Shown here in pieces: positions 5,220 through 29,866 of a stretch of DNA of 33,430 nt. The stretch is taken from positions 1-33,430 of the forward strand of contig JAPPGU010000039.1 of assembly GCA_028821265.1 (NCBI GenBank). The letters are read 5' to 3'. The translations under genes were made by a program, and so were the position numbers. Below the pieces are notes generated by a model that was not told the DNA's origin, did no database searches, and worked only from the letters and a program-made list of their open reading frames with translations. This stretch comes from a bacterium. Lineage in GTDB: Bacteria; Actinomycetota; Acidimicrobiia; Spongiisociales; Spongiisociaceae. The first letter of the stretch is position 1, and each line of letters opens with the position of its first letter.

Positions 5220-5319
5220 GGGAGGGTGCCGAAAACCCCCTGTCGCCCGGTGATCGATGACAGAATGTACGGGCACGGGCGACGGGCCAACCACCACCGC
5301 CCGCTTTCAACACCCTCCT
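5220..5319 (+). repeat. M-element copy 1 (100-bp repeat with complementary ends)
   Basis: It begins GGGAGGGTGCCGAAAA and ends CTTTCAACACCCTCCT, two imperfectly complementary arms, with GGGCCAACC in the 3' part as in the other copies (16551-16649, 23697-23796, 29764-29866). It ends 18 bp upstream of the SDR start codon. It is the most diverged copy in the 3' region. Confidence 0.6.
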
Positions 5320-5337
5320 AGAGCAAGGAGCGAACCG

Positions 5338-6120
5338 ATGGACCTGGGCCTCAAGGACAAGGTAGTCGTGGTGACCGGCGCCAGCCGCGGGATCGGGCGG
5401 GCGATCGCGCAGGCGTTCGCCGCCGAGGGCGCCCGCGTGGCCGCCCTGGCCCGGACTGCCGATGACCTGGCGCGTACGGTCGAGATGCTGGAGGGTGAGG
5501 CCGGCGCCCACCTGGCCGTGACCTGCGACGTGACCGATCCCGGCCAGGCGGTGTCGGCTCTCGACCGGGTGCGGTCCGAACTCGGGGGCCTCGACGTCCT
5601 GGTCAACAATGCCGGGCGCCGCCAGAACTTCAGCCGGCTCGACACCCTTGAGCTGGACGAGTGGCGCGTGGGGATAGAGGCCAACCTGTCATCGGTCTTC
5701 TACATGTCCCGGGCGGCGGTCACCTCGATGATCGAGCAGCGTTCCGGTTCGATCGTCAACATCTCATCCATAGCCGGTCCGGTGGCGTTCGCCAACATCG
5801 GCGCCTACTCGGCCGCCAAGGCGGGCGTCATCGCCCTCACCAAGGTGATGGCGATCGAGTGGGCCGAGTTCGGCATCCGGACCAATTCGGTGGCCCCCGG
5901 CTGGACCGAGTCCTACATGAACTACGAGCTCCGGACCGACCCCGCCAACCGCGAGCTGTTCGAGTCGATCCGCGACCAGGTCGTGATGAAAAGGTTCGCC
6001 GACCCGTCCGAGACCGCCAACGCGGTGTTGTTCCTGGCGGGAGACTCGGCCAGCTACATCACCGGCGAGACCATCTTCGTCGACGGAGGCTGGACGGCCG
6101 AAGGCTGGACGGCGGACTAG
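5338..6120 (+). CDS. Short-chain dehydrogenase/reductase (SDR), FabG-like
   Basis: 260 residues, the usual size of a classical SDR. The NAD(P)-binding motif TGASRGIG is at residues 13-20, NNAG near 91-94, the catalytic Ser in NISSIAG near 143, and Tyr-x3-Lys (YSAAKAG) at about 157-161. The C-terminus reads FVDGGW, as in FabG-like reductases. It should catalyse NAD(P)(H)-dependent oxidation or reduction of a hydroxyl/carbonyl in the cytoplasm; the substrate is unknown. The ATG at 5338 is chosen because AAGGAG (5325-5330) precedes it by seven bases; the frame stays open to 5257 but without a ribosome site or SDR homology. A repeat element ends 18 bp upstream. It stands alone, with no co-directional partner in the next 2 kb. 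Confidence 0.9.
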   Translation: MDLGLKDKVVVVTGASRGIGRAIAQAFAAEGARVAALARTADDLARTVEMLEGEAGAHLAVTCDVTDPGQAVSALDRVRSELGGLDVLVNNAGRRQNFSRLDTLELDEWRVGIEANLSSVFYMSRAAVTSMIEQRSGSIVNISSIAGPVAFANIGAYSAAKAGVIALTKVMAIEWAEFGIRTNSVAPGWTESYMNYELRTDPANRELFESIRDQVVMKRFADPSETANAVLFLAGDSASYITGETIFVDGGWTAEGWTAD

Positions 6121-6547
6121 CCGCAGCGACCAACCTTTAGAACTCTCGGCGAGTCCCGCCGACCCCGACGACGCCCGAGGCAGGCGCCGGTGTCCGTTTG
6201 AGCCGGATACCCACAGTGTCCGATGCCTCCGGTAGGCCGCGTTCTGTGACCCGTCGTGAGCGGCGTTGGTGCGGCGTACGAACAAGGGGGTTGAACATGT
6301 CACGGGCCCGCCACATACTGTCCGGTAGTCACAAGCACCACCGGTTTCCTGCTATTCGACGTCGAGGGAACCGGAACCGGGATCAATTCGGGAGCGGACC
6401 CGCCGGGGGATAGCGGAACGCGTTCGGACCGAAGGAGGTGGTGGCTGGGGGATGGGCCCGCGGGTTGGGGGCGTGTTCCGGCGTTTTTCGCGTTCTCGTC
6501 GTTTGGCGTGTCGTAGCGGACTACCGGATCCGGACACGCCGGAAGGC
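6121..6547. other. Intergenic region with dispersed repeat copy D1
   Basis: No gene is supported. 6327-6500 aligns with 19115-19310: both have AGTCRCMAGCACC near one end, then GAGGGAAC, a GGTGGTGG-rich block ending in GGGCCCG, and GTTTTTCGCG at the other end. The two are diverged but collinear. The function is unknown; a decayed mobile element or a non-coding RNA are possibilities. Confidence 0.45.
6505..6540 (-). terminator. Inverted repeat downstream of the esterase gene
   Basis: GGCGTGTC (6505-6512) pairs with GACACGCC (6533-6540) around a 20-base loop that itself contains the palindrome CGGATCCG. It begins eight bases after the stop codon of the minus-strand esterase. There is no T-run on the minus strand, so intrinsic termination is plausible but not typical. 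Confidence 0.4.
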
Positions 6548-7912
6548 TCACTCCTGCGACAGGAGCCAGTCCACGAGCGCGTCCACGAACGCGTCGCCGT
6601 AGCCGGGCGCATGGCTGCTCCCGACGGTCATCCAGAGCCCTATCTCGACTCCCTCGGCGCAGCCTGATTCCAGGCGGAATGCCCTGGTCTCGGCTCCGAC
6701 CACATGCCCGTCCAGATCGAGCGTGGCATAAGGCTGGGGTTGTTCAGGCCATTCGCAGCCGGCCCGCCGGCTCCACCGGTTCACCATTTCCATAGCCCCG
6801 GCGTAGAAGGCCGGTTCGCCGTCGCCCTTCGGATCCGGCTCGCTGTCGCCTTCGAAGCGGATCACGTCGTCCGCGGTGCCGTGGATGTGCAACACCGACA
6901 CGGGGGATGCGCCGTCGCAGCTGCTGTCCTCGACGTAGCTCGTACCGGCCAGGCTGGCGACGGCGCGCAGGCCGGGCAGGCCCTTGCAGGCGATATGGTA
7001 CGACATGAAGCCGCCGTTGGAGTAACCGAAGAAGTACACCGGCCCGAAGTCCATGACCTGCTGTGCTCCGGCCACCAACTCGGTCAGGTAGGCGACATCA
7101 TCCTGGCCGCCCTTGGCGGAGTCGCAGCACTCGTCGGTGGGGTTCCAGAAGCGGTTGCCCTCGCTGTCCGGGATCCCGTTGGGGAGCAGCAGCGCGAACC
7201 CGTCGGTGTTAACCCGCTCGTGGAGGGGCATGTAGGTGGTCTGATAGGAGGAGTCCCCTCCATAGCCGTGCAGGGAGACGATGAGTGGGGTCTCTCCGTC
7301 AACCGCGGCGAGAGGCACCAGCAGAACGGCGGGGTCTTCCCGTTCGGGGTGGTCGATGTGGTGGACCTTGCCTCCGGACTCCGCCGCCAGCCGGACGGTC
7401 CTTTCCAGGACGGTGCCCTCCAGCAGCGACAAGGGATCGTCCTGTCCCTTGGCCCACTGCTCCACGGAGCGGAGGACCCACTCCACGGTGGCGGCGAGGT
7501 CCTCCATGTCCCGCACGCGGGCGTCCAGATCGTCCAGGCGCTCGAGAACGTCGGTCCGGCCGTCTTCGTGGATGGCCGGCTGTTCCTCCTGATCCTCCTC
7601 CAAGGCCGCCACCCCCTCCTGTTCCCTGGCGGAACCGGCGGCTTCACGTCCCTCCACGGAGTCGGCCTGTTCCGACAGGATCGCAACCTCATCCCTCAGC
7701 GCAGCGTTCTCACGGGCAAGCGCTTCGAGCGACTCCTCCAGCGAACTGGTCTTCGCTTCCAGCGCGTTCAACCGCTCGTCCGAGGCGGGATCCTGGCTCG
7801 AGCCGGCACATGCGAACGAGATGGTGGCCACCAGGATGCAGACCGCTGACCTACCAAGATGTCGCAGCGAGCCCACCCGAGACTCAGGCCACCGGGGATG
7901 CGGCAGTAGCAC
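6548..7912 (-). CDS. LpqC-like lipoprotein esterase with coiled-coil stalk
   Basis: 454 residues. The N-terminus is a lipoprotein signal with a hydrophobic run and a lipobox ending SFAC at Cys35. Residues ~45-155 are Glu/Leu/Ala-rich heptads (LNALEAKTSSLEESLEALAR), predicted coiled coil. From ~180 it is an alpha/beta hydrolase of the polyhydroxybutyrate depolymerase / feruloyl esterase (LpqC) group: LHGYGGDSS oxyanion region, nucleophile elbow GYSNGG near 297, acid in HGTADD near 344 and His in SSHAPG near 434. It should be a membrane-tethered extracytoplasmic esterase; the substrate is unknown. GTG 7912 overlaps the upstream LLM gene by 29 bases; GTG 7876 is an alternative without overlap that keeps the signal peptide. 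It is co-directional and probably co-transcribed with the LLM gene. Confidence 0.85.
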   Translation of the reverse strand: MLLPHPRWPESRVGSLRHLGRSAVCILVATISFACAGSSQDPASDERLNALEAKTSSLEESLEALARENAALRDEVAILSEQADSVEGREAAGSAREQEGVAALEEDQEEQPAIHEDGRTDVLERLDDLDARVRDMEDLAATVEWVLRSVEQWAKGQDDPLSLLEGTVLERTVRLAAESGGKVHHIDHPEREDPAVLLVPLAAVDGETPLIVSLHGYGGDSSYQTTYMPLHERVNTDGFALLLPNGIPDSEGNRFWNPTDECCDSAKGGQDDVAYLTELVAGAQQVMDFGPVYFFGYSNGGFMSYHIACKGLPGLRAVASLAGTSYVEDSSCDGASPVSVLHIHGTADDVIRFEGDSEPDPKGDGEPAFYAGAMEMVNRWSRRAGCEWPEQPQPYATLDLDGHVVGAETRAFRLESGCAEGVEIGLWMTVGSSHAPGYGDAFVDALVDWLLSQE

Positions 7913-8942
7913 CGGGGGAGGAGCCGCCGGGAGCCCGGTGGGGTGCGAACACCTCGATGATCTCCTCGTAGTTCTCGGTGATCGGGAGCAGGGCCGGGTG
8001 GATGTTGGGCCGGACCGAGTAGGCGGCCACCTGTTCCCGGCACTGGTCGGGTGTTCCAGCCGCCGTCAGCGATCTGACGACGTCGATGGGTACGAGGGGC
8101 ATCGCGGCCTCGATCCCGCCGTCCCTCGGCGGCCAGCCTCCCATGGCCTCGCGCACGCGGTCCAGCAGGTCCTGGTCGACGCCGCTGGCCAGTGCGATGT
8201 GGGGTTGCTGGTCCAGGTACATGGTCGTCATCCTGGTGGCCACCTCGAGCGCCTTCTTCTCGTCCTCGTCCATGGCGATCACGATGGTCTGGGGGAGGTC
8301 CAGGTCGTCCACCCGCCGGCCGCTCCGCCGGGCGCCCCGCTCGATGTGCCCGAGGGCGTCAGTCAGGTAGGTGAGGGACGTGAACCCGTTGAGCATCACC
8401 CCGTCGGCCAGCTCGCCGGAGAGCGCCAGCATCTGCGGTCCGGTGGCGCCGACGTAGATCGGAACCCGCTTCGGGATGCGGGCCACGCCGTGCCCGAGGT
8501 CCAGGCGCAGGTCGCGCACCGCCACCAGCTCGCCCTCGTAGGTGACGGTCTCGAGCGCCAGCAGGCGGCGGGTGACCTCGATGTATTCCCGCATCTGCTT
8601 CACGGGCTTGCGCCGGTCGATCCCCTGCTTCCGCGCCAGCGGGTCCCAGTAGGCGCCGATCCCGAGCAGCATCCGGTCGGGGGCCAGTTCGTCCAAGGTG
8701 GCGAAGGTGACCGCCATCAACGACGCCGGGCGGGTCCACGAGTTGACCACCCCGCTGCCCACCTTGATACGGTCGGTCGCGTAGGCGATGGCGCCCATAA
8801 CGGAGATGGCGTCCCTGGCGGTGCGGGTCTCGCAAACCCACACCGAGTCGTATCCCAGCTCTTCCATCCTGATGGAGAGCGCCACCTGCCGCCGAGGGTC
8901 CGGCCGGTCGAGAAAACACATTCCCACGCGCCCACCAGTCAT
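7884..8942 (-). CDS. LLM-class (F420-type) flavin-dependent oxidoreductase
   Basis: 352 residues from the ATG at 8942, where the family-like sequence begins (MTGGRVGMCFLDRPD). GGGAGG precedes it by about 11 bases. The open frame continues to 9080 but with non-homologous sequence. Features of the luciferase-like monooxygenase / methylenetetrahydromethanopterin-reductase fold include ELGYDSVWVCETRTARDA, IKVGSGVVNSWTRPASLMA, LDELAPDRMLLGIG and PIYVGATGPQMLALSGELAD. It should be a cytoplasmic TIM-barrel enzyme using F420 (or FMN); actinobacterial members are mostly F420-dependent, but the cofactor is not proven by sequence. It is divergent from the aminotransferase at 9064, with a ~120-bp shared intergenic region, and overlaps the esterase gene downstream. 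Confidence 0.87.
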   Translation of the reverse strand: MTGGRVGMCFLDRPDPRRQVALSIRMEELGYDSVWVCETRTARDAISVMGAIAYATDRIKVGSGVVNSWTRPASLMAVTFATLDELAPDRMLLGIGAYWDPLARKQGIDRRKPVKQMREYIEVTRRLLALETVTYEGELVAVRDLRLDLGHGVARIPKRVPIYVGATGPQMLALSGELADGVMLNGFTSLTYLTDALGHIERGARRSGRRVDDLDLPQTIVIAMDEDEKKALEVATRMTTMYLDQQPHIALASGVDQDLLDRVREAMGGWPPRDGGIEAAMPLVPIDVVRSLTAAGTPDQCREQVAAYSVRPNIHPALLPITENYEEIIEVFAPHRAPGGSSPGATAASPVA

Positions 8943-9063
8943 GAAGTGATCGTCCTCCCTGTCAATGCCGATCGATGGCAACTCTACCGGGGGTGCCCTT
9001 CCGGGCTGCTGCCGGGCGGTGCCGGCAGGCGGTAGGCTGACCGGCAGTCTCGGAGAGGTGAAG

Positions 9064-10350
9064 GTGACCGCCGACTTCAACTACACAGAAGCCCTCCGCC
9101 GGGTCAGCGACGAGTACGTGGCCCGGAATACTCGTTCCATGGAGATCGCTGAGCGTGCCGCGGTGGTCCTTCCCGGAGGTACGACCCGGACCACGACCTT
9201 CTTCGCGCCTTTTCCCCCGGTCCTCGTGGCGGGGGAGGGAGCGGAGATCGTGGATGCGGATGGCAACCGCAGGGTCGACTACCTCAACAACTACACGTCG
9301 CTGATCCTCGGCCACGCCCATCCCGACGTGTTGGAGCGAGCCATGTCGGTGGCCCGCCGGGGAACCGCCTTCTCGTCGCCTACCGAGCAGGAGGTTGTCC
9401 TGGCCGAGGTGCTGGTCGAGCGGGTTGCCTCGGTCGACCAGGTCCGTTTCACGAACTCCGGAACCGAGGCCACGATGGCAGCCATGCGGTTGGCCCGGGC
9501 CTTTACAGGCCGCCCGGTCGTGGCGCGCTTCGAGGGCGGCTATCACGGCACGCACGATTACACGGCCACGCCGGGGGCGGGGATCCCGGACCCGATCGGC
9601 GACTTGGTGGTCACCCTGCCGCTGAACGACATCGCCGGTTGCGAGCGGAGGATGGCGGACGTGGCCGGCTCGCTGGCGGCGGTCATCATCGAGCCCGTGC
9701 TGGGTGCCGGGGGCGTGATCGCTGCCGACCACGAGTTCCTCGCCTACCTGAGGGACGCCACCAGCCGGATTGGCGCCCTGCTGATCTTCGACGAGATCGT
9801 CACCCTCCGCCTGCACACTGGCGGGGCCCAGGCGATCCGCGGGGTCCGCCCGGATCTGACCACCTTCGGCAAGATAATCGGCGGCGGGTTCCCGATCGGT
9901 GCCTTCGGCGGGCGGAGCGAGGTGATGGCCCTGCTCCACCCGACGGAGGGAACCATCAGCTGGGGCGGCACCTTCAACGGCAACCCGGTGAGCGCCGCCG
10001 CCGGCATCGAGACTCTGGAGGCGCTCACCGCGCCGGTCATCGACGAGCTGAACCGGTCCGGGGAGGAGCTCACGGAGCGCCTCGACAAGGCCCTCCAGTC
10101 ATCAGGACTCCCAGCCGGCGCGACCGGCACGGGGTCCCTCTTCAACATCCACGCCACCGGCGAGGAGGTCACCGACCATCGCGCCGTGCGGCGAGCCGAT
10201 CCCGAGCTGACCGAGCTCCTGCACCTGGGCCTGATGAATCGCGGGTACTTCCTCGGCCCCCGCGGCATGGGCTGCCTGTCCACCGCCATGACCTCCGAGC
10301 AACTGGACGGCTTGGTGGATGCCGTCGAGGACCTCGTCAACAGCCTGTGA
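9064..10350 (+). CDS. Class III PLP aminotransferase, glutamate-1-semialdehyde aminomutase-like
   Basis: 428 residues. LPGGTTRTTTFFAPFPP followed by NYTSLILGHAHPDV is the N-terminal signature of the HemL-like branch of class III aminotransferases. Further on are NSGTEATMAAMRLARAFTGR, GGYHGTHD, IFDEIVTLR (the Asp that contacts the PLP ring nitrogen) and TTFGKIIGGGFPIGAFGG, where Lys ~269 forms the PLP Schiff base. It probably moves an amino group on an amino acid or amino ketone. Heme-pathway HemL itself is unlikely, because no heme genes are nearby and the motifs are not those of canonical HemL. The GTG at 9064 is preferred over GTG 9058 because GGAGAGG then lies at a workable distance. Divergent to the LLM gene; convergent to the VWA gene. 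Confidence 0.87.
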   Translation: MTADFNYTEALRRVSDEYVARNTRSMEIAERAAVVLPGGTTRTTTFFAPFPPVLVAGEGAEIVDADGNRRVDYLNNYTSLILGHAHPDVLERAMSVARRGTAFSSPTEQEVVLAEVLVERVASVDQVRFTNSGTEATMAAMRLARAFTGRPVVARFEGGYHGTHDYTATPGAGIPDPIGDLVVTLPLNDIAGCERRMADVAGSLAAVIIEPVLGAGGVIAADHEFLAYLRDATSRIGALLIFDEIVTLRLHTGGAQAIRGVRPDLTTFGKIIGGGFPIGAFGGRSEVMALLHPTEGTISWGGTFNGNPVSAAAGIETLEALTAPVIDELNRSGEELTERLDKALQSSGLPAGATGTGSLFNIHATGEEVTDHRAVRRADPELTELLHLGLMNRGYFLGPRGMGCLSTAMTSEQLDGLVDAVEDLVNSL

Positions 10351-10428
10351 CGGTTGGCGGCAGCCTTTCCGGGCCGCTGACCCGTTCTTCCGATGGGGCC
10401 ACTGTTCGGTAACAGGCGACCGGTAGGG

Positions 10429-11574
10429 CTATGCCACCGCCCAGCCTTCCAGGACTCGGGCTAGGTCTTCCAGGCCTTCGATGCTGTGGCCTGCGATGAG
10501 TTCGTCGACGAACGGTAGGGCTGCCACCAGCCCGCGGGCCAGCGGTTGGAACTTCGGATCGCCTGCCAGGGGGTTGACCCATATGACGCGGTGCGCCTGG
10601 TGGGACAGGCGCCGCATGGCCCATGCCAGCCGGTCGGGCTCGCCCCGCTCCAGGCCGTCCGAGCAGATGATCACCGTGGCTCCCCGGTTGAGGCGGTGTT
10701 TGCCCCACCTTGTCACGTAGGCGCCCAATGACTCGCCGATCCTGGTGCCCCCGTCCCAGTCGACCACCAGATCGGTTGCCTCGTCGAGGGCCGCGTTGGG
10801 GTCGCGCACCCGCATGGCGTTCGTGAGCCGGGTGAGCCTGGTCCCGAAACAGAACACCTCCACCCGTCGCGAGGCTCGGCTCATCCCGTAGGCGAACTGG
10901 ACCAGGGCCCGCGAGAAGCCGGCCATGGACCCCGAGACGTCGACTATCAGGACGATGGGCCGGGGCCGCTCCATCCGGCGGCGCCGGCGGAGGTGGACCA
11001 GATCACCCCCGTAGCGAAGGGAGTGGCGGACGCTGCGCCGGAGGTCGATCCGGGGGCCTCTCGGAGACGGGCGGGTGCGCCGGGTGATCTTCTGGGGCAG
11101 CTGCAGGGTCGGTAGCAGCCGGGCCAGCCGGCGGAACTCCTCCTCCGTCCAGCGGTCGAAGTGCTTGGTCCTCAGGATCTCGGCGCTCGAGGCCCGTGGC
11201 CCTCCGGCCGCAGGCAGTTCCTCATCGCCGGCATCGAGCACCTCGACCTCCTGGTGGTCGGTGCCGAAGGAGATGGAGGCCGGATCCCCGTCACCGCCGT
11301 CGGCGGTCGCCAGCGGCAGGATGGCGGGAGTGGAGTCGTTCTCGGAACCGATAAAGAAGGCGTCGAAGGCGGCGTCATAGACAGCCAGGTCGGCTCGGTG
11401 GTTGATCAGAGTGATCCGGCCCGCCCAGTAGAGGTCCTCGATGCCGGCCGGGTCGAGGTCGGCCACCGCGCTGGCGTAGGACACCACCTGGCCCGCCCCG
11501 ACCTTGACCCCGTGGATCCGCAACAACCGTCCGAAACGGACCAGTTCGGTGGTCGGTCCGGGCTCAGGTCCCAT
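10429..11574 (-). CDS. VWA-domain protein, CoxE-like
   Basis: 381 residues. The N-terminal ~100 residues (RFGRLLRIHGVKVGAGQVVS) match the start of the CoxE/YeiN-type VWA family. An Arg-rich linker (LRYGGDLVHLRRRRRMERPR) leads into a von Willebrand A domain with the MIDAS motif DVSGSM near 213, the conserved Thr in WDGGTRIGESL and ICSDGLERG. Such proteins work with MoxR ATPases as chaperone pairs for metal-centre or complex maturation, for example in CO-dehydrogenase clusters. The ATG at 11574 lies inside the 3' end of the MoxR gene (11-bp overlap), so the two are translationally coupled. No CO-dehydrogenase subunits are in the window, so the client is unknown. Confidence 0.85.
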   Translation of the reverse strand: MGPEPGPTTELVRFGRLLRIHGVKVGAGQVVSYASAVADLDPAGIEDLYWAGRITLINHRADLAVYDAAFDAFFIGSENDSTPAILPLATADGGDGDPASISFGTDHQEVEVLDAGDEELPAAGGPRASSAEILRTKHFDRWTEEEFRRLARLLPTLQLPQKITRRTRPSPRGPRIDLRRSVRHSLRYGGDLVHLRRRRRMERPRPIVLIVDVSGSMAGFSRALVQFAYGMSRASRRVEVFCFGTRLTRLTNAMRVRDPNAALDEATDLVVDWDGGTRIGESLGAYVTRWGKHRLNRGATVIICSDGLERGEPDRLAWAMRRLSHQAHRVIWVNPLAGDPKFQPLARGLVAALPFVDELIAGHSIEGLEDLARVLEGWAVA

Positions 11575-16550: not shown

Positions 16551-16649
16551 AGGAGGGTGCTCAAAGACGGGGATGGTTCGCCGTGGTCCATTGATCCGGG
16601 GTTGGATTGCAAGCTATCGGGCCAACTGGACATTTCTCGGTACCCTCCT
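16551..16649 (+). repeat. M-element copy 2
   Basis: 99 bp. It starts AGGAGGGTGCTCAAAG and ends CATTTCTCGGTACCCTCCT; the arms pair with few mismatches. The 3' portion GGGCCAACTGGACATTTCTC is nearly identical to copies 3 and 4. It ends 15 bp upstream of the lipoprotein start codon at 16665, and no Shine-Dalgarno lies between them. Confidence 0.7.
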
Positions 16650-16664
16650 ACCCTCCCCACCGGG

Positions 16665-19442: not shown

Positions 19443-19479
19443 TATCCGACCATCTACGGCCCGTCGCTAGCCTCGCGCC

Positions 19480-21212: not shown

Positions 21213-21213
21213 G

Positions 21214-22290: not shown

Positions 22291-22307
22291 GACAGAGGAG
22301 TAGCGAC

Positions 22308-23687
22308 GTGGCCATAAGGGCGGTGGTGCTGGGGGCAGGCGAGGGCTCCCGGATGAAGTCGATCCTCCCCAAGGTGATCCATCCTGTGGCGGGGCGGCCG
22401 ATGATCGAATGGGTCCTCAACGCCACCGCATCCCTGGACCCGGTCCAGACCGTGGTGGTGGTCAAGCCGGATGCCGACCAGGTGGTGGCGATGCTGCCCG
22501 ATGGGGCCACACCGGTGGTGCAGCCCAAACAGCTGGGTACCGCACACGCCCTCCAATACGCTCTCGAGGTTATCCCGCTGGATGCCGAAGACCATGTGCT
22601 GGTCGTGCCCGCCGACACGCCGCTCATCACGAGCGACACGCTGGCCGAGATGGCCAAGCTCCACCGGCGGACCGGAGCGGCCGTCACCTGCGTCACCGCC
22701 AACATGGAGGATCCGACCGGTTACGGACGGGTGGTGCGTGACGGCTGGGGCCGGGTGGAGAGGATCGTGGAACATGCCGACACCAACACCCACGAGCGGG
22801 AGATCAACGAGATCAACGGCGGCGTCTACATGTTCGACGGATCCTTGATCCGGGAAGCGGTGGCACGTGTGGAGCGCGACAACGTCCAGGGTGAGTACTA
22901 CCTGCCCGACATGGTGGCCATTCTCGGCGCGGAGGGGTACGGGATCAGCGCCTACCGGACCGATGCCGAGGAGTTGTCCGGCGTCAACACGCAGGATCAG
23001 CTCGCCGGTGTCGCAGAGATCTTCCGGCACCGGATCAACCGGGCCTGGATGCGGGACGGGGTCTGGATGCAGGACCCGGGCCGGGTCTATATCAACGCCT
23101 CGGTGCGCCTAGAGGCGGGAGTACGGATACTTCCTGGGGTGCACCTGGAAGGATCGACTTCGGTTGCGGAAGGCGCCGAGCTCGGTCCCGACTGCTTCAT
23201 CAAGGACAGCCGGATCGGCTCCGGCGCGAGGATCTGGTATTCCGTGCTCAGGGGCGTATCGGTGGGGGCCGATGCCGAGGTCGGTCCCTTCGCCTCGCTC
23301 CGGCCCGGGGCGGAGTTGGGCGACGGCGCCAAGGCAGGCACCTTCGTGGAGGTCAAGAACTCGGTGGTCGGCGCCCGCGCCAAGGTTCCCCATCTCTCGT
23401 ATGTAGGAGATGCCGAGATCGGCGAGGAGGCCAACGTGGGTGCGGGGACCATCACGGCCAACTACGACGGGTACGACAAGCACCGAACCCGCATCGGAAG
23501 CCGCGCGCAGATCGGCTCCAACACCGTACTGGTGGCGCCGGTCGAGGTCGGGTCCGAGGCCTACACGGGCGCCGGCTCGGCCATCACCCGTGATGTTCCC
23601 GATGGCGCTCTCGGCGTGGAGAGGGCTTCCCAGCGGGAGATTCCCGGCTATGCGAAGCGGCGGAAAGCTCGCCACGAGGCCGAGTAG
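22308..23687 (+). CDS. glmU: Bifunctional UDP-N-acetylglucosamine pyrophosphorylase / glucosamine-1-phosphate N-acetyltransferase GlmU
   Basis: 459 residues, normal for GlmU. GTG 22308 is chosen for the GAGGAG seven to eight bases upstream; the longer frame runs through the tRNA. The N-terminal uridyltransferase has VVLGAGEGSRMKSILPKVIH (a variant of the LAAGxGTRMxS-LPK loop), QLGTAHAL and GEYYLPDM. From ~residue 265 left-handed beta-helix hexapeptides appear (GVRILPGVHLEGSTSV; IGEEANVGAGTITANYDG; IGSNTVLVAPV), containing the acetyltransferase site. It makes UDP-GlcNAc for peptidoglycan. The C-terminal KRRKARHEAE tail is basic. prs follows after ~115 bp occupied by an M-element. Confidence 0.96.
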   Translation: MAIRAVVLGAGEGSRMKSILPKVIHPVAGRPMIEWVLNATASLDPVQTVVVVKPDADQVVAMLPDGATPVVQPKQLGTAHALQYALEVIPLDAEDHVLVVPADTPLITSDTLAEMAKLHRRTGAAVTCVTANMEDPTGYGRVVRDGWGRVERIVEHADTNTHEREINEINGGVYMFDGSLIREAVARVERDNVQGEYYLPDMVAILGAEGYGISAYRTDAEELSGVNTQDQLAGVAEIFRHRINRAWMRDGVWMQDPGRVYINASVRLEAGVRILPGVHLEGSTSVAEGAELGPDCFIKDSRIGSGARIWYSVLRGVSVGADAEVGPFASLRPGAELGDGAKAGTFVEVKNSVVGARAKVPHLSYVGDAEIGEEANVGAGTITANYDGYDKHRTRIGSRAQIGSNTVLVAPVEVGSEAYTGAGSAITRDVPDGALGVERASQREIPGYAKRRKARHEAE

Positions 23688-23696
23688 GCGGGCGCC

Positions 23697-23796
23697 GGAG
23701 GAGTCGGGGATGGGCCTCCATCGTTGTCCCGCGATCCCCGGACCGGAGTCTCGTCGCCGGCCAATGGGCCAACCGGACATTTTTCAGTACCCTCCT
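23697..23796 (+). repeat. M-element copy 3
   Basis: About 100 bp. The 3' end GGACATTTTTCAGTACCCTCCT is preserved, as in copy 4; the 5' end is decayed (GGAGGAGTCGGGGATGGG in place of AGGAGGGTGCTCAAAGACGG). It ends five bases before the prs ATG, leaving no room for a normal ribosome-binding site. Confidence 0.65.
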
Positions 23797-23801
23797 AGGA
23801 C

Positions 23802-24773
23802 ATGGAGCTCGTAACCCGCAAGCGCTTCATGCTGTTCACCGGATCGGCCAACCCCGAGCTGGCCGAGGCGGTGGCGGACGAGCTGGGCGTGAGGCTCGGC
23901 AAGATCCAGCTGTCGCGCTTCGCCAACACGGAGGTGTACACCCGCCCTTCGGAGTCGGTCCGCGGGTATGACTGTTTCGTCATCCAGAGCCACGCCCCCG
24001 AGATCAACTTCCACATCATGGAGCAGTTGATCCTGATCGACGCCCTCAAGAGGGCATCAGCCCACCGTATCACCGCGGTCGTGCCGTTCTTCGGGTATGC
24101 CCGGGCCGACAAGAAGGTACTGCCGCGTGAACCCATCTCCGCCCGGCTGATGAGCGACCTCTTCCTGGCGGCCGGGGCCGACCGGATAGTGTCGGTCGAC
24201 CTCCACACCGGCCAGATCCAAGGCTTCTTCCCGAAGCCGTTCGACCATCTGACCGCGCTGCCGATCGTGACCGACTATCTCAAGGAACGTCTGGATGGTC
24301 CTACCACCGTGGTCTCCCCCGACGCCGGCGGCGTGAAGCGGGCCGAGAAGTACGCCCGCTACCTGGGGGCCTTCGTGGCCTTCGTCCACAAGCGCCGCGA
24401 GCTCGATGTCCACAACGAGTCCCAGGCCCTGACCGTGGTGGGAGCGGTACGGGGGCGCAATGCGGTGATCGTGGACGACATGATCGACACCGGCGGAACC
24501 GTGGAGAATGCGGCCCGGTTACTACGCGAAAGAGGCGCCCGGAAGGTGTACGTGGCGGCTACGCACCCTGTGCTGTCGCCCCCCGCCCTCAACCGGCTGA
24601 AGAAGGCTCCGATCGATGAGGTGGTGGTCACCGACACGCTTCCGATCAGCAAGGAAGCTCGGGACTTCGACAAGTTGACCCGGTTGTCGGTCGCTCCGAT
24701 GCTGGCCGAGGCCTTGCAGGCGATCTTCATGGACAGTTCGGTGTCGGCGCTATTCCTCGGTGACAACAACTGA
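23802..24773 (+). CDS. prs: Ribose-phosphate pyrophosphokinase (PRPP synthase)
   Basis: 323 residues. Class I PRPP synthase motifs are LFTGSANPELAEAVADELG, GYARADKKVLPREPISARL (the ATP/flexible-loop region; most have YARQDRK), VSVDLHTGQIQGFF, VVSPDAGGVKRAEKYAR and the PRPP-binding loop VIVDDMIDTGGTV. It makes PRPP from ribose-5-phosphate and ATP for nucleotides, His, Trp and, in actinobacteria, arabinan precursors. Next to glmU, as in most Gram-positives. The ATG at 23802 lies five bases after an M-element whose last bases are CCTCCT, identical to the anti-Shine-Dalgarno core, and no SD is seen. yjbQ starts immediately after the stop. Confidence 0.95.
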   Translation: MELVTRKRFMLFTGSANPELAEAVADELGVRLGKIQLSRFANTEVYTRPSESVRGYDCFVIQSHAPEINFHIMEQLILIDALKRASAHRITAVVPFFGYARADKKVLPREPISARLMSDLFLAAGADRIVSVDLHTGQIQGFFPKPFDHLTALPIVTDYLKERLDGPTTVVSPDAGGVKRAEKYARYLGAFVAFVHKRRELDVHNESQALTVVGAVRGRNAVIVDDMIDTGGTVENAARLLRERGARKVYVAATHPVLSPPALNRLKKAPIDEVVVTDTLPISKEARDFDKLTRLSVAPMLAEALQAIFMDSSVSALFLGDNN

Positions 24774-25187
24774 ATGGCTCTTGATACCGAGATCTTCCGG
24801 GTGAGGACCGGCGCCGAACCGGCCGTTGTCGACATCGGCTACCGGCTGGCCACGTTCGCCCAGGGCCGTGGCGATGGCCTGCTGTCGGTGTTCGTGCCCC
24901 ACTCCACGGCCGGGTTGGCCGTCATGGAGGTGGGCGCCGGGTCCGATAGAGACCTTCTCCGGTACCTGCGGGATGGTATGTCCCCCGACCGCTACCGCTG
25001 GGAACACCGGCACGGCGCTCCCGGTCATGGCGCCGATCACGTCATTCCCGCCTTCATATCGCCCAGCCTGGTGCTTCCCGTCCGGGACGGTGCGCTGGCC
25101 CTGGGCATGTGGCAGACCGTCGTGCTGGTGGACACCAACGTGGGCAATCCGGTACGGAACGTGAGGCTCAGCTTCCTGGCTGCTTGA
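24774..25187 (+). CDS. YjbQ/UPF0047 family protein
   Basis: 137 residues. The family core is intact: GLLSVFVPHSTAGLAVMEVG, then RWEHRHGAPGHGADHVIPAF, and PVRDGALALGMWQTVVLVD (normally ...LALGTWQ.I.L.). The His residues in these motifs are the presumed metal or active-site ligands. Some homologues have weak thiamine-phosphate synthase activity, but the physiological role is unsettled. Its ATG directly abuts the prs TGA, so the two are co-translated. Its 3' end overlaps the convergent LysM gene by 20 bases. Confidence 0.87.
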   Translation: MALDTEIFRVRTGAEPAVVDIGYRLATFAQGRGDGLLSVFVPHSTAGLAVMEVGAGSDRDLLRYLRDGMSPDRYRWEHRHGAPGHGADHVIPAFISPSLVLPVRDGALALGMWQTVVLVDTNVGNPVRNVRLSFLAA

Positions 25188-26004
25188 GCGTCCACGCTCG
25201 CGTACCGAGGTCGGGGAGGACTATCCGCTCGCCGGGGAAGATGAGGTTGGGATCTCCGGAGCCGATCAGGTCCCGGTTCATTTCGATCACCTGTTTCCAG
25301 AGCGGGGCGATCTCCTCGGCGCCGGCCGTCCGGCCCAGGTGTGCGGCCAGGTAGCTGGCGGTGATCGACCACAGGTGGTCGCCCCGCTGCACCGTGTAGG
25401 TGACGGACGCCTCCCCGTGATCCAGGAGGGCACCGGGCGCTCCGCCGGCGAGGTGTGGAACCGGCACGATGACTCCGCCGGTGTCCGGAGACGATGTCAG
25501 GGGATGGTCCCCGTCGGGACTCGTGGCTGCCATGGGGACCGGGACGGTGGCGGCCGTCGGCGAGGCCGGAAGGACCGTGCTGGCGGCCGGGTCGAAGGCG
25601 GCTCCCGGGTGCTCGGCCGTGACGGCATAGGGAACCGGAGGGGCGTGGGCTGCGCCCGCCGGCGTCGAGATCGACAAGCTCCCCACCGCCAGCACCAGCG
25701 CCGCGGCGCGGCGGGCCAGATGGCGAATGGGAGCGATCGTCATCCACCGGGTTGCTCGCACCGCAACCGGGATACGGGTCACGTAGGCGAGGACGGAGAG
25801 GACGGTGGTGAGGCCGACCCAAGCCGTGATCGCGGCTGCGAGGAGCCAGACTGCTCCGTAAATCGCCTCCTCCGGGCCGGCGGTGAGGATCCGGCCCGGA
25901 GGGGGAAGCCAGGATGACTCCCTCAATCGGAGGAGTAGTAGGGCGCTGCCGGCCACTCCGGAGCCCAGGGCGGCCATCTGGATGAGCGTGCGTATCGGTC
26001 TCAT
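25168..26004 (-). CDS. Membrane-anchored LysM-domain protein
   Basis: 278 residues from ATG 26004; the frame is open to 26052. Residues ~5-25 (LIQMAALGSGVAGSALLLL) and ~50-75 (AIYGAVWLLAAAITAWVGLT) are transmembrane; a third hydrophobic segment lies near 105-120 (AAALVLAVGSLSISTPAGAA). A Pro/Ala/Thr linker leads to a C-terminal LysM domain (YTVQRGDHLWSITASYL, then NPDLI-like NRDLIGSGDPNLIFPGERI), which binds peptidoglycan GlcNAc. It is probably a wall-linked membrane protein. No clear ribosome site precedes ATG 26004; a TACGTAT-like -10 a few bases upstream suggests a leaderless message. Divergent from whiB, sharing a region with two CRP-type boxes. Confidence 0.8.
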   Translation of the reverse strand: MRPIRTLIQMAALGSGVAGSALLLLRLRESSWLPPPGRILTAGPEEAIYGAVWLLAAAITAWVGLTTVLSVLAYVTRIPVAVRATRWMTIAPIRHLARRAAALVLAVGSLSISTPAGAAHAPPVPYAVTAEHPGAAFDPAASTVLPASPTAATVPVPMAATSPDGDHPLTSSPDTGGVIVPVPHLAGGAPGALLDHGEASVTYTVQRGDHLWSITASYLAAHLGRTAGAEEIAPLWKQVIEMNRDLIGSGDPNLIFPGERIVLPDLGTRAWTLKQPGS

Positions 26005-26082
26005 GCCGTATACGTATCGCGCCGTGCCCGGGCTTTCAAGACCCTTGGTCAAGGCCGGAGAAATCCGAGATCGTCAAAAGTT

Positions 26083-26098
26083 TGTGAAGGAAATCACT
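26083..26098. promoter_or_regulatory. CRP/FNR-type box 1
   Basis: TGTGA, six bases, TCACT: nine of ten conserved positions of the CRP consensus TGTGA-N6-TCACA. It lies 200 bp upstream of the whiB start and 79 bp upstream of the divergent LysM start, so it could serve either gene. Confidence 0.6.
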
Positions 26099-26169
26099 TG
26101 CGGGCCGGCGAGGGGCCTGGTTAGTCTTTACGGCAAGTCGGCTCGCCGGCTCTTAATTTGGCCCGTCCT

Positions 26170-26185
26170 TGTGAAACAGTTCACA
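26170..26185. promoter_or_regulatory. CRP/FNR-type box 2 upstream of whiB
   Basis: TGTGA, six bases, TCACA, an exact CRP consensus, extended to the perfect 8+8 inverted repeat CTTGTGAA/TTCACAAG (26168-26187). It lies 112 bp upstream of the whiB GTG. In Mycobacterium tuberculosis whiB1 is controlled by the cAMP receptor protein Rv3676 through two sites; the match of both gene and operator supports a conserved circuit. Confidence 0.72.
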
Positions 26186-26297
26186 AGCGAGAGGGTCGGA
26201 CCCCGAAACTGCGGGCGTATGGCGCTGCGCCTGGACACCGCCCGGACGGAGGGGGGAGCCGAGATCCGACGGTTTCGCGACTAGAAGGTGCAAGACC

Positions 26298-26570
26298 GTG
26301 TTGACCATTACCGAGCCGGACTGGCGTGAGATAGCGGCATGCCGGGACTCCGAGCCGAGTCTTTTCTTCCCCATCGGCACGACGGGGTTGGCCATAGAGC
26401 AGATCCAGGAAGCCAAGGGCATCTGCTCGCTCTGCTTGGTGACTGATGAGTGTTTGCAGTACGCGCTTCAGACCAACCAGGAGGCCGGGGTCTGGGGAGG
26501 TTATGCGGAGGATGAGCGGCGCCGGCTTCGCAAGCGCTGGATGGCCGAGCGGCGCCGGGCGGCTAGCTGA
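26298..26570 (+). CDS. whiB1: WhiB-family iron-sulfur regulator, WhiB1-like
   Basis: 90 residues from GTG 26298, with AGAAGG (26283-26288) upstream. The four cluster Cys are in AACRD (Cys15) and the CSLCLVTDEC block (C-x2-C-x5-C). GVWGGY is the family turn, and the basic tail RRRLRKRWMAERRRAA is the DNA-contact region. The sequence DWREIAACRDSEPSLFFPIG, AKGICSLCLVTDECLQYAL and GVWGGYAEDERRRL is closest to mycobacterial WhiB1, an essential [4Fe-4S] protein that binds SigA and reacts with nitric oxide. It sits alone behind a ~245-bp control region with two CRP-type boxes. The Met/Leu-rich start differs slightly from WhiB1, but length and motifs agree. Confidence 0.92.
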   Translation: MLTITEPDWREIAACRDSEPSLFFPIGTTGLAIEQIQEAKGICSLCLVTDECLQYALQTNQEAGVWGGYAEDERRRLRKRWMAERRRAAS

Positions 26571-26676
26571 AGCGGAGCGGATCAGCCCCTCGTCTCGGTG
26601 GGTGCCACTAGGGGCCCGTCGGGGGGTGAAGAGAGCCGGTCCCGTCGTACTCCACATGGTGGGGTGACCGTTCCTA

Positions 26677-26882
26677 GCCCTGATTATTCATGTCCCCAGC
26701 ACACCGACGCGGATCAGGCCACTTCAACCACATCATTTGCGCAGAGGCCACCTTTCACCTGCTAGGTGACACCACATCCGGCCGGAGGATTGGGTAGCCA
26801 AGATGGCTATAACCCCGGTCAGGGAGATGAAGCGCCCGTTTCCTGTCACCCGCCCAAACCCCCATCCATGAATAATTGGGGC
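26677..26882 (-). mobile_element. MITE-like element, copy A
   Basis: 206 bp flanked by TA on both sides (26675-26676, 26883-26884), with terminal inverted repeats GCCCTGATTATTCATG and, from the other end, GCCCCAATTATTCATG. It is in opposite orientation to copy B (32596-32795). The ~60 bp at the end with ACATGAATAATCAGGGC are nearly identical between copies; the interior is diverged but collinear. It encodes no plausible protein. TA duplication would fit an IS630/mariner-type mover, inferred only from the flanks. It fills most of the whiB to DUF3107 gap (26571-26881). Confidence 0.72.
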
Positions 26883-27103
26883 TACCGGCCGAAGCCCACG
26901 GCTTTGTCGGGGGATTCCACCAACTCGATGAAGGCGATGCGCTCCAGCGGGACTCCTATGTCGCCGCCCTTGGCGTCCTGGAACCACAGGAGGGACACCC
27001 CGTCGCTGTAGGCGTCCTCGAGCCGCCTGACGATCTCGTCCCTGCTACCGACTTCCACCTCGATCTCACGCCCGGTATCCGCGATTCCGATACGTGCTCT
27101 CAC
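26882..27103 (-). CDS. DUF3107 family protein
   Basis: 73 residues from a GTG at 27103 with GGGAGG five to six bases upstream. The start RARIGIADTGREIEVEVGS and the central GVSLLWFQDAKGGDIGVPLERIAFIEL match the short, conserved, actinobacteria-specific DUF3107 family (the mycobacterial member is ~74 residues). Function is unknown in the family. The stop TAG (26882-26884) lies exactly on the TA flank of MITE copy A, so the last codons (ESPDKAVGFGR) may have been altered by that insertion. Confidence 0.85.
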   Translation of the reverse strand: MRARIGIADTGREIEVEVGSRDEIVRRLEDAYSDGVSLLWFQDAKGGDIGVPLERIAFIELVESPDKAVGFGR

Positions 27104-27167
27104 CCGAACCTCCCCGGCCTTTGTGAGCTAGATGCGTCCAGGATCGTAGCCCAGTGGCCAGTGACCA

Positions 27168-27962
27168 CTAACCAGCCTTGCGGTGAGCGGTCTGCTCCCT
27201 GGTCGCCTCGACGGAGGCCTTCAGGGCTTCGAGCAGATCCACCACCCGGGTTGGTTCCGGGGTCTCCGTGGCGACGATTTCCTTGCCCTCGATCTTCTGG
27301 CGCACCAGTTCCTCGATCTTCTCGCGGGTGGTGTCCGTCCATTGGTCGGGCACGAAATCCGTGGCGAGGTTCTCGATCAGCATCTTGGCCATGGCCATCT
27401 CGCTCTCCAGAGGCTCCACCTCCGTCTCGAGGTTCTCGAAATCGGCGGCGCGGATCTCGTCCGGCCAGTACATGGTCTCCAGGACGAGCAGGTCCTTCTG
27501 CGGCCTGATCGCCGCCAGGTGCTGGCGGGACCTTATCGCCACGGTTGCGATGGCGACCCGGTCGGTCTCGGCCAGGGCGGCCCGGAGGAGGCGGTAGGCC
27601 TTCTCTCCCGTGGGGCCGGGTTCCAGGTAATAGGACGTGCGGTAGTAGACGGGGTCGATCTGGAGCGCGTCGACGAAGGCCGCCACATCGACGATGCGAG
27701 GGCCGCCCTGGTAGGCGGCCGCGGCGATCTCGTCGTCGGTAAGCACCACGTACCGGCCCTTCTCGAACTCGTAGCCGCGCACGATCTCCTCGCGAGGGAC
27801 CTCGCGACCGTCGGCATCGGCCACCTTGCGATACCTGATCGGGCTGTGGTCCTGCTCGCGGAGCTGGCGGAACTTGGGCCGCCGGCTGGTCGTAGCCGGA
27901 TACAGGCGAACCGGAATGGTTACCAAGCCGAACGATACGGCGCCGCTCCGGATGGGTCGCAT
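27168..27962 (-). CDS. ku: Ku homologue, non-homologous end joining
   Basis: 264 residues, typical of bacterial Ku. MRPIRSGAVSFGLVTIPVRL is the universal Ku start; HSPIRYRKVADADGREVPRE and VRGYEFEKGRYVVLTDDEI are Ku-core motifs, with YYLEPGPTGEKAYRLLRAAL and LETMYWPDEIR following. The homodimer threads onto DNA double-strand ends and recruits LigD; no ligD is in this window. The C-terminal tail after ~245 is short and mildly basic (ATREQTAHRKAG). ATG 27962 has no SD; TAGACT seven bases upstream could be the -10 of a leaderless promoter. Confidence 0.95.
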   Translation of the reverse strand: MRPIRSGAVSFGLVTIPVRLYPATTSRRPKFRQLREQDHSPIRYRKVADADGREVPREEIVRGYEFEKGRYVVLTDDEIAAAAYQGGPRIVDVAAFVDALQIDPVYYRTSYYLEPGPTGEKAYRLLRAALAETDRVAIATVAIRSRQHLAAIRPQKDLLVLETMYWPDEIRAADFENLETEVEPLESEMAMAKMLIENLATDFVPDQWTDTTREKIEELVRQKIEGKEIVATETPEPTRVVDLLEALKASVEATREQTAHRKAG

Positions 27963-28230
27963 GTGCGGAGTCTAGGGGGATGCCGGGAGAAGAAAGGGGA
28001 CGGGCTTGGATCGCACCCGGTCCGCTCCCCTGTGGACAAACCGCGGGCGGCTGTTCTATACTCCATCGACCCACCAACGGCAGGAAACCACCTGCCATCC
28101 GGCCGGGGCGCCGCGTTCTCTCCCCCTAGAACCGCGCCCCGGCCTTCCAAATTCCGGCGCCGGCCAAGCCCGGCCTCGTCCGCCCGATCCCGGCGTACTG
28201 GTAGGCTTCGCTGCCCGCATTCGAGCGCCA
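27963..28230. other. Ku / tRNA-Arg intergenic region
   Basis: 268 bp with no gene. On the plus strand it contains a promoter-like pair (28033-28062) and a strong imperfect hairpin at 28105-28141 (GGGGCGCCGCGTTCT against AGAACCGCGCCCC). Confidence 0.5.
28033..28062 (+). promoter_or_regulatory. Sigma-70-type promoter candidate for tRNA-Arg/lysA
   Basis: TGGACA (28033-28038), 18 bases, TATACT (28057-28062): five of six matches in each hexamer. It is about 170 bp upstream of tRNA-Arg, so the transcript would have a leader with the hairpin at 28105-28141. Confidence 0.45.
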
Positions 28231-28302
28231 GCCCTCGTAGCTCAGGGGATAGAGCACCGGCCTCCGGAGCCGGGTGCGCAGGTTCGAATCCTGCCGAGGG
28301 CG
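28231..28302 (+). tRNA. tRNA-Arg (anticodon CCG)
   Basis: Acceptor stem GCCCTCG/CGAGGGC, D-arm AGCTCAGGGGATAGAGC, anticodon arm CCGGC-CTCCGGA-GCCGG with anticodon CCG (28264-28266), T-arm GGTTCGAATCC. Discriminator G at 28302; the next bases are CCT, so CCA is not encoded, unlike the tRNA-Gln in this window. In many actinobacteria argS precedes lysA; here a tRNA-Arg stands in that position. Confidence 0.96.
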
Positions 28303-28373
28303 CCTAGCTAGTCTGTAGTCAGTAGTCGGCAATTAGCGTTACTCAGTTTGTGACAACCGGCTGGAAACCAGCG

Positions 28374-28415
28374 ACTATCAGCTAGCAACTACCAGCTAGG
28401 AACTAATCATCTAGT
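28374..28415 (+). repeat. Three tandem 14-bp repeats upstream of lysA
   Basis: ACTATCAGCTAGCA, ACTACCAGCTAGGA and ACTAATCATCTAGT follow one another without gaps, AT-rich in a GC-rich context. They end 30 bp before the lysA ATG. Earlier in the same leader TAGTCAGTAGTC is a further short repeat. They may be operator-like or slippage products. Confidence 0.6.
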
Positions 28416-28445
28416 CTGGTGCGGCCCATTCCCAGAAGGTTCGCT

Positions 28446-29765
28446 ATGGCGCTGCGCGATGTGCTTCCCTTGACCTGGACCCTACGGAACGACCGAGCTT
28501 CGATCGGTGGTGTCCGGCTGCGCGCGATCGCAGAACACTTCGGAACACCTGCGTACGTGTTCGACATGGCCCATCTCGAGGCGCGCCTAGATGAATTCAC
28601 GAGCGCCTTCGACGGGATCGGTGTGCCCGTGTATGCCACCAAGGCCTTCATCTGCCCTGCCCTGGCCGAGATGGTCTCGTCACGGGGCTGGTGGGCGGAC
28701 GTGGTGTCGGTCGGAGAGACCGCCATCGCCCGGCGAGGAGGGATTCCGGCCTCCCGCATCCTCCTTCACGGCAATCTGAAATCCGAGGCCGAGATCGACC
28801 TGGCGGCCTCGGGACAGGTGGGCATCACGGTCATCGACAGCCTGGACGAGATCGACCGGCTGGCCCGGGCCGCCCGGGCGGCGGGTCGTACCGTGGACGT
28901 GATGATCAGGCTCAACGAGGCGGTCGACCTGGTCACCAACCGGAAAGTCCTCACCACGGGCGATCACGCCAAGTTCGGGTTGTCGCCGGACGCGACCGAC
29001 CAGGCCATAGCCAGGGTGGCCGCCACCGAAACCCTCCGGCTACGAGGGCTGCATCTCCATGCCGGGAGCCACATAACCGACCCGGAACTGTATGCCCGGA
29101 TCCTGGAACGTCTGGCGGCGGTCGTGGCACGGAACCGGTCGGCCTTCACCACCACGCCGGTCATTCTCGACGTGGGAGGCGGCATGGCCTCGCCATACCT
29201 ACGCGCCGATCCGAAGATCAGCCCGGCCGAGGTGGCCGCCGCCTTGCGGCGAGCCCTCGGGTCGCCGGAGATCGTGGAGCGGATAGGGCCGGTCGAGGTC
29301 ATGGTGGAGCCGGGCCGGGCGCTGGTGGCCAACGCCGCGGTGCTGCTCTACACGGTCGGGGTTCGCAAGCCGTTGCCGGGCGGTGGCGAGATGCTGGCCC
29401 TTGACGGCGGCCTCACCGACAACCCGAGACCGGCCCTGTACGACTCCAGGTACGAGTTGTTGGCCGATGGCCGGCTTGACCAGCCGGCGGACCATCCCTT
29501 CCGGGTGTTCGGCCGGATGTGCGAGACAGACGTGATGCTCGAGGAGGTCCTGCTACCGGCGACCATGGCCCCCGGTGATCTGGTCGCCATGCCCGCGGCG
29601 GGCGCCTACACCTTCGCCATGTCGTCCCGCTACAACGTGTTGCCCCGCCCGCCCGTCCTGTTCGTCAAGGACGGCGAGGTGCGGGAGGTGGTGCGCCGGG
29701 AGACACTCGAGGAGGTTCTGGCGGGTCAAAGAACATTGAATGAGACCGAACCGTTGGTCGTCTAG
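28446..29765 (+). CDS. lysA: Diaminopimelate decarboxylase LysA
   Basis: 439 residues from ATG 28446 (AGAAGG six bases upstream); GTG 28419 is in frame but lacks an SD. It is a fold-III PLP enzyme: VYATKAF holds the PLP Lys, HLHAGSH replaces the usual H.GSQ, DVGGGM is the phosphate-binding glycine loop, VEPGRALVANA contacts PLP, RMCETDVML carries the cross-dimer Cys, and PAAGAYTFAMSSRYN is the C-terminal signature. It decarboxylates meso-diaminopimelate to lysine. lysA, hom and thrC are co-directional, as in mycobacteria and corynebacteria. The stop TAG is shared with the first bases of M-element copy 4. Confidence 0.95.
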   Translation: MALRDVLPLTWTLRNDRASIGGVRLRAIAEHFGTPAYVFDMAHLEARLDEFTSAFDGIGVPVYATKAFICPALAEMVSSRGWWADVVSVGETAIARRGGIPASRILLHGNLKSEAEIDLAASGQVGITVIDSLDEIDRLARAARAAGRTVDVMIRLNEAVDLVTNRKVLTTGDHAKFGLSPDATDQAIARVAATETLRLRGLHLHAGSHITDPELYARILERLAAVVARNRSAFTTTPVILDVGGGMASPYLRADPKISPAEVAAALRRALGSPEIVERIGPVEVMVEPGRALVANAAVLLYTVGVRKPLPGGGEMLALDGGLTDNPRPALYDSRYELLADGRLDQPADHPFRVFGRMCETDVMLEEVLLPATMAPGDLVAMPAAGAYTFAMSSRYNVLPRPPVLFVKDGEVREVVRRETLEEVLAGQRTLNETEPLVV

Positions 29766-29866
29766 GAGGGTACTGAAAAATGTCCAGTCGGCCCGAAAAC
29801 CGGAAACAAGACCCCAGGCAGAAGTATCGCGGGCCAACCCATCCTCGTCTTCTTCAGCACCCTCCT
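29764..29866 (-). repeat. M-element copy 4 (inverted)
   Basis: 103 bp. In plus-strand reading it begins AGGAGGGTACTGAAAAATG and ends TTCTTCAGCACCCTCCT, near-perfect complementary arms (~15 bp). Relative to copies 1-3 it is reversed: the conserved GGACATTTTTC arm is on the lysA side. It starts inside the lysA stop codon and ends 20 bp before the hom ATG. Confidence 0.72.

What the first reader, a model, noticed from the sequence alone, without database searches (positions are those of the whole stretch)
5220..29866. Four ~100-bp elements with SD/anti-SD ends, each just upstream of a start codon
Copies at 5220-5319, 16551-16649, 23697-23796 and 29764-29866 share length (99-103 bp), ends AGGAGGGTRCTGAAA ... 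TTTCAGTACCCTCCT and an inner block GGGCCAACYGGACATTTTTC. They end 18, 15, 5 and 20 bp before the start codons of an SDR, a lipoprotein, prs and hom. In RNA the arms would form a long stem; one arm contains AGGAGG (Shine-Dalgarno) and the other CCUCCU (anti-Shine-Dalgarno core). For prs and the lipoprotein no other SD is visible. The element may be a MITE family domesticated as a translation-control leader. One copy is inverted and still sits upstream of a start, as expected if the palindromic arms, not the orientation, matter.
Basis: partly seen in the sequence, partly recalled or inferred. Interest (0 to 1): 0.75.

Follow-up and report, generated by a model that had tools for sequence, protein, structure and literature searches.

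The report
Tiny mobile hairpins near gene starts
These four repeats belong to a large family of ~100-bp non-coding jumping DNA elements in uncultured Acidimicrobiia that lodge beside stop and start signals of genes; they look like ordinary bacterial MITEs rather than translation switches, though they sit near start codons more often than chance.

Summary
The repeats are real: four members of a MITE-like family, about 103 bp, imperfect palindromes with inverted ends GGAGGGTRCTGAAAA, flanked by TA. The genome holds 46 model matches (E<=1e-4), the ten searched genomes of its genus 473. Arm matches occur in 13 of 59 genomes searched, all in one family. Mobility is shown by empty sites: hom is filled in 4 of 10 genomes (two insertions in opposite orientations), prs in 8 of 10, the SDR in 1 of 9, the lipoprotein gene in 4 of 7 alignable. 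The duplicated target is most simply TA.

Translation control is not supported. hom and the SDR keep their SD filled or empty; the lipoprotein gene has none in empty genomes either. Arms covary slightly but significantly, equally near and far from starts.

Two target classes account for much of it: TAG stops in tight gaps, and TANNNT boxes before SD-less starts. A residual excess is unexplained, and no mobilising transposase was found. New member of a known kind.

The parts
5221..5318 (-). Copy A, core GG...CC, upstream of the SDR gene; right TA at 5319-5320, left TA decayed
   Evidence: E 3.2e-4, minus orientation; absent in 8 of 9 aligned genomes
5325..5330 (+). Native SD AAGGAG of the SDR gene, outside the element
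   Evidence: AAGGAG in 8 of 9 aligned genomes, GAGGAG in G001
16552..16648 (+). Copy B, core, upstream of the lipoprotein gene
   Evidence: filled in 4 of 7 alignable genomes, the G002 copy being partial
16649..16654 (+). TACCCT box whose TA is the target of copy B; -10-like (function inferred)
   Evidence: Present in 7 of 7 alignable genomes, 3 of them empty
23687..23795 (+). Copy C, core, between glmU-like gene and prs; left arm decayed
   Evidence: filled in 8 of 10 genomes
23685..23687 (+). TAG stop of the glmU-like gene at the left edge of copy C
   Evidence: Gene call 22308-23687; empty G008 reads TAG GCC ATG
29765..29865 (-). Copy D, core, between the lysA-like gene and hom; right TA decayed to TC
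   Evidence: filled in 4 of 10 genomes, two orientations
29763..29765 (+). TAG stop of the lysA-like gene, target of copy D
   Evidence: the stop is TAG in 9 of 10 genomes and TAA in G008
29876..29880 (+). Native SD GGGAG of hom, outside the element
   Evidence: GGGAG in 9 of 10 genomes, AGGAG in G009

Best explanation
The elements are copies of a MITE-like, non-autonomous mobile element of about 103 bp: an imperfect palindrome bounded by GGAGGGTRCTGAAAA inverted ends that inserts at TA, usually within TAG or CTAG, and duplicates it. Shown: copy number, ends, empty sites, insertion in both orientations at the same hom site. Best reading of the junctions: a 2-bp TA duplication (TAG not strictly excluded). 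Inferred: a transposase encoded elsewhere moves them in trans. They sit close to starts because their target is common at two kinds of place where insertion is survivable: TAG stops in tight gaps between genes, and TANNNT boxes of genes that start without an SD. There the duplicated TA, with the element's first G, re-makes the stop codon or leaves the box intact. Once inserted they mostly drift. AGGAGG and CCTCCT are transposon ends, not ribosome signals.
For: 46 matches in the genome and 473 in ten genus genomes; arms 62 against 2 for the reversed pattern. Orthologous filled and empty sites at all four window genes. 23 filled/empty pairs for 13 copies, of which the 2 for one copy are mis-paired; of the other 21, 11 overlap by exactly 2 bp, the rest range from -5 to +1. 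Base after TA at near-start sites is G in 41 of 54 against 163 of 462 controls. Native SDs of hom and SDR lie outside the element; the lipoprotein gene has none even when empty. Orthologous filled copies: left arm 90.9%, interior 87.6%, right arm 92.5% identical.
Against: No transposase with these ends was found. Placement near starts exceeds TA and TAG/CTA controls, which target choice by TA or TAG alone does not explain. Arm pairing is slightly above chance. Arms are a little better conserved than the interior, and the start-proximal left arm tends to be better kept (p 0.07). Interiors differ between types while length stays near 100 bp, which drift alone does not predict.
Confidence: 0.86

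Rival explanations
1. Domesticated translation-control leader: the arms fold in mRNA and hide or present AGGAGG to the ribosome at the downstream start.
For: Placement near starts is non-random. Genes starting within 16 nt of an element show an SD in 9 of 40 cases against 229 of 414 other genes (not de-duplicated). Three of four window copies fold well. At prs the start-proximal arm varies less over 8 species.
Against: Presence differs between species; native SDs persist at hom and SDR; arm covariation is small and the same far from starts. Only 8 of 28 near starts show an SD even after the element is removed in silico. The prs copy does not fold better than shuffles. AGGAGG lies about 100 nt from the start.
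Confidence: 0.06
2. Hybrid-promoter element, like the Correia 'Black' promoter: the right end brings promoter parts (TGGACA 16 bp before the target TA, and an internal TACCCT) and the target completes the -10 box, giving leaderless or short-leader transcripts, for instance at prs.
For: TANNNT peaks 10-13 nt before starts in this genus, 48 among 443 starts. All 8 filled prs copies keep TACCCT or TACTCT 12 nt before the ATG. Correia elements complete -10 boxes at their insertion sites (PMC2649163, passages).
Against: Near-start orientation is not biased to the right end (18 of 43); the left end has no such parts (read by eye). At 9-12 nt, T at the sixth place is no commoner than in controls: 7 of 10 against 24 of 41.
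Confidence: 0.12
3. A REP/BIME-type palindrome moved by a RAYT (Y1) transposase rather than a MITE moved by a DDE transposase.
For: Palindromic, with TAG at the edges; [quoted passage not shown]
Against: TA at both ends and 2-bp overlap at empty sites; one ~100-bp palindrome, not 20-40-bp units.
Confidence: 0.06

Closest known systems
RUP of Streptococcus pneumoniae (PMC3049150, passages seen)
   Same: About the same length (107 bp), inverted ends, causes target duplication, about 110 copies in a genome, thought to be moved in trans by IS630-Spn1
   Different: RUP is AT-rich and overrepresented between convergent genes; this one sits in tight gaps and before starts. No IS630 transposase was found in the genus (0 of 10 genomes). 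No sequence relation was tested.
Correia elements (CREE) of Neisseria (PMC2649163, passages; review PMC10969869, sections 3 and 4.1)
   Same: Short palindromic MITE, often at a TA target, often 5' of genes, can complete promoters
   Different: Different ends and host; promoter, IHF and RNase III roles are reported there and untested here
GTAG REPs (PMC3733652, passages)
   Same: Palindromic; ends often supply TAG stops to neighbouring genes
   Different: REPs are 20-40 bp and tied to RAYT transposases; here ~103 bp with TA at both edges

Membership tests
MITE (general class) | Short, interspersed, multicopy | tested here: met
   About 103 bp; 27-75 matches per genome in ten genomes
MITE (general class) | Terminal inverted repeats | tested here: met
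   GGAGGGTRCTGAAAA at both ends
MITE (general class) | Target-site duplication and empty sites | tested here: met
   Empty sites at all four window genes; TA overlap in 11 of 21 credible pairs; of 141 copies, TA is still intact at the left edge in 89, at the right edge in 97, at both in 67
MITE (general class) | No transposase gene of its own | not tested
   At ~103 bp it cannot hold one; coding potential was not computed
MITE (general class) | Autonomous relative with the same ends | tested here: inconclusive
   36 of 37 transposase matches (PF13358, PF01609) examined, none bounded by the ends; PF07592 gave nothing but its control was silent too; genomes are fragmented
IS630-related MITE (RUP-like) | IS630 transposase with matching ends in the host | tested here: inconclusive
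   PF13358 in 0 of 10 genus genomes and 3 of 15 family genomes, no matching ends
Known RNA family (Rfam 15) | Covariance-model match at gathering score | tested here: not met
   Window: only two tRNAs reach the threshold
Structured cis-regulatory RNA | Compensatory changes beyond relatedness, tied to the gene start | tested here: inconclusive
   2 of 19 predicted pairs have a double change; pairing excess 0.24 of 13, significant, but equal near and far from starts
REP/RAYT element | Y1 transposase flanked by the repeat | not tested

The most novel reading that the evidence does not exclude
A hairpin element suited to stop/start junctions. Being one long palindrome bounded by TA, it could fold out of the mRNA and leave the upstream stop or SD next to the downstream start, so that coupled genes keep being translated across a 100-nt insert (hairpin-bridged initiation). 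That would explain the about fourfold excess 4-14 nt before starts (27 of 94 against 6.8 expected). Against it: the prs copy no longer folds well, and only 8 of 28 near starts have an SD in the joined sequence.
Probability: 0.07. Interest if true: 0.7.

Novelty: new member of a known kind. Interest (0 to 1): 0.36.

Why it matters
It adds a MITE-like family to an uncultured actinobacterial lineage, with up to 75 matches per genome in the genus. It gives natural pairs of start regions with and without a 100-bp insert, some at genes usually essential (prs), which can test how SD-less and coupled starts tolerate insertions. It also shows a trap: palindromic transposon ends containing AGGAGG and CCTCCT can imitate a translation switch.

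Tried and rejected
Autonomous partner: 36 of 37 transposase matches examined, none bounded by the ends; one locus (L202) has a short copy nearby. Long-distance arm pairs were found in 10 of 72 loci (L032-L103); I opened 4 of the 10, and there the arms belong to short copies or are unpaired. L214 has one intact arm without a good partner, unexplained. Viral contigs: 8 one-arm matches, none with an opposing arm of up to 2 mismatches; 0 two-arm matches. Plasmids and phages: no blastn match of the consensus at E 1e-5. Four-base CTAG duplication: judged unlikely, since at prs the base before the left TA is G, in empty G008 too, while the right copy reads CTAG in most filled genomes. Start-proximal arm better conserved as a rule: a trend only (edit distance 1.19 proximal, 1.56 distal; left arm p 0.07, right arm p 0.69).

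Papers: (Acidimicrobiia + MITE) listed 4 papers, none on the subject by title; one search listed 1 (used); two searches gave the comparisons cited. I claim no more about absence in print than these searches show.

Limits: starts and genes come from my own caller; it put the lipoprotein start 48 nt too far downstream. Copies from other genomes are best-scoring ones from a capped list: 92 matches in 80 loci of four congeners. Of 52 own hits that I listed (two with E above 0.01), 2 had no fetched flank and 1 duplicate contig copy was dropped, leaving 49. Of 116 distinct sites, 16 that fell inside a called gene after excision are left out of the intergenic fractions. Model R1 was built from copies picked by their right arm, which favours right-arm conservation.

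Full report
What is there. The window holds four copies of a ~103-bp imperfect palindrome. The majority consensus of 30 copies begins CTAGGAGGGTGCTGAAAAAGACGGGG and ends GGGCCAACTGGACATTTTTCAGTACCCTCCTAG. As single-stranded DNA that consensus folds far better than shuffles (z -4.91). The genome (2.6 Mb in 87 contigs, 84.56% complete) has 62 arm matches at up to 3 mismatches against 2 for the reversed pattern, and 46 model matches at E<=1e-4. No Rfam family reaches its threshold in the window except two tRNAs.

Where it occurs. Of 59 genomes searched (the own one and 58 relatives), 13 have arm matches at up to 2 mismatches: all 10 of the genus and 3 of 5 of other genera of the family; 0 of 44 in other families of the order. 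Ten genus genomes hold 473 model matches, 27 to 75 each; only the best 150 first-look candidates per genome were scored. Other genera of the family carry the same ends with another interior and nearly the same length, as does one copy in L083. One subfamily within the genus has GGAGCATGC...CACTCC ends.

It moves. hom: G000 and G006 carry the inverted copy, G002 and G005 a direct copy, six genomes none; the target is the upstream gene's stop, and GGGAG (AGGAG in G009) before hom lies outside the element. prs: 8 of 10 filled; in empty G008 the stop TAG is followed by GCC and ATG, with GAGG 8 nt before the ATG, which in filled genomes is about 110 nt upstream. SDR: only the window genome is filled of 9 aligned (no strong match in G009); GGAGCG is kept in 9 of 9. 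Lipoprotein: 4 of 7 alignable genomes filled (one partial), two further orthologues not alignable at the start and none strong in G004; the TACCCT box, its TA 14 nt before the ATG, is present in 7 of 7. A flank comparison over 141 copies gave 23 filled/empty pairs for 13 copies; the two pairs of one copy are mis-paired; of the other 21, 11 overlap by exactly 2 bp, i.e. TA, the rest range from -5 to +1. Over 141 copies TA is intact at the left edge in 89 and at the right in 97. The base after the right TA is G in 56 of the 67 copies with TA at both edges, so TAG is preferred.

Placement. 141 copies (49 own, 92 from four congeners) fall into 116 distinct sites, 100 intergenic after in-silico excision. 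Within 30 bp of a start: 43 of 100 against 355 of 1797 intergenic TA sites and 209 of 1055 TAG/CTA sites. Within 3 bp of a stop: 38 of 100 against 233 of 1797 and 193 of 1055. Tight stop/start tandem: 26 of 100 against 98 of 1797 and 74 of 1055. Limited to gaps under 300 bp, which removes most effects of missed genes: 4-14 nt before a start 22 of 69 against 78 of 714 TA and 46 of 414 TAG/CTA; at a stop 32 of 69 against 103 of 714 and 90 of 414. Counted per gap rather than per TA site, the shift is slight: about 56% of the 64 copies in tandem gaps sit in gaps of 0-80 bp, against about 46% of 280 tandem gaps.

Why near starts. Two target classes appear. In tight gaps, TA plus the element's first G forms the TAG stop of the upstream gene. 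At the other sites 9-12 nt before a start, 7 of 10 read TANNNT, like 24 of 41 control TA sites there, so the class reflects where TA occurs rather than an extra taste for the box. TANNNT peaks 10-13 nt before starts in these genomes (48 among 443 starts), which I read as leaderless promoters (inference from known actinobacterial practice). Genes starting within 16 nt of an element show an SD in 9 of 40 cases against 229 of 414 other genes. After excision only 8 of 28 such starts show one, so surviving insertions mostly sit where there was no SD to break. That explains why no other SD is visible, without making the element an SD. The excess over TAG/CTA controls remains; target choice beyond TAG or selection against insertions elsewhere may cause it.

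Tests of an RNA role. RNAalifold finds a double change in 2 of 19 pairs. Own-arm pairing beats shuffled partners by 0.24 of 13 pairs (0 of 2000 shuffles reach it) and by 0.10 within subfamilies (p 0.003), so there is some covariation; but it is the same at sites within 30 bp and beyond 60 bp of starts (105 of 116 sites usable), as expected if subfamilies and transposition cause it. In one pair per shared site (22 sites) left arm, interior and right arm are 90.9, 87.6 and 92.5% identical; start-proximal arm 93.1%, distal 91.2%. Some shared sites may be separate insertions (one pair is 59% identical), which would lower the interior most. At prs alone the start-proximal arm clearly varies less than the distal arm over 8 species, so exaptation there, perhaps as a promoter, stays open.

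Closest known. RUP and Correia elements are nearest in size and target; GTAG REPs share the habit of supplying TAG stops (passages or named sections seen, no whole paper read). What it works like: a MITE. Whether it is one in full: all tested defining features are met except a partner transposase, which was not found, so the mobilising enzyme is unknown.

Noticed in passing
26674-26884 and 32594-32798 (inverted pair): A second repeat family of about 210 bp, ends TAGCCC.GATTATTCATG...CATGAATAATTGGGGCTA; similar copies (70-91% identity) in about ten other fetched loci. Possibly another MITE.
   Followed up: partly
33196-33401: A 102-bp stretch repeated in tandem at 104-bp spacing, 98% identical, at the window's right end.
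   Followed up: no
443 predicted starts in the window and fetched genus loci: TANNNT peaks 10-13 nt before starts (48 occurrences), suggesting common leaderless transcripts in this genus.
   Followed up: partly
L214:644 (G013 C140:24642): An intact element end without a good second end in the 2.5 kb fetched; a fragment or part of a longer element.
   Followed up: partly
G000 C28:6441-6555 and C69:2363-2477: Two copies identical with their printed flanks, so probably a duplicated or redundantly assembled stretch.
   Followed up: no
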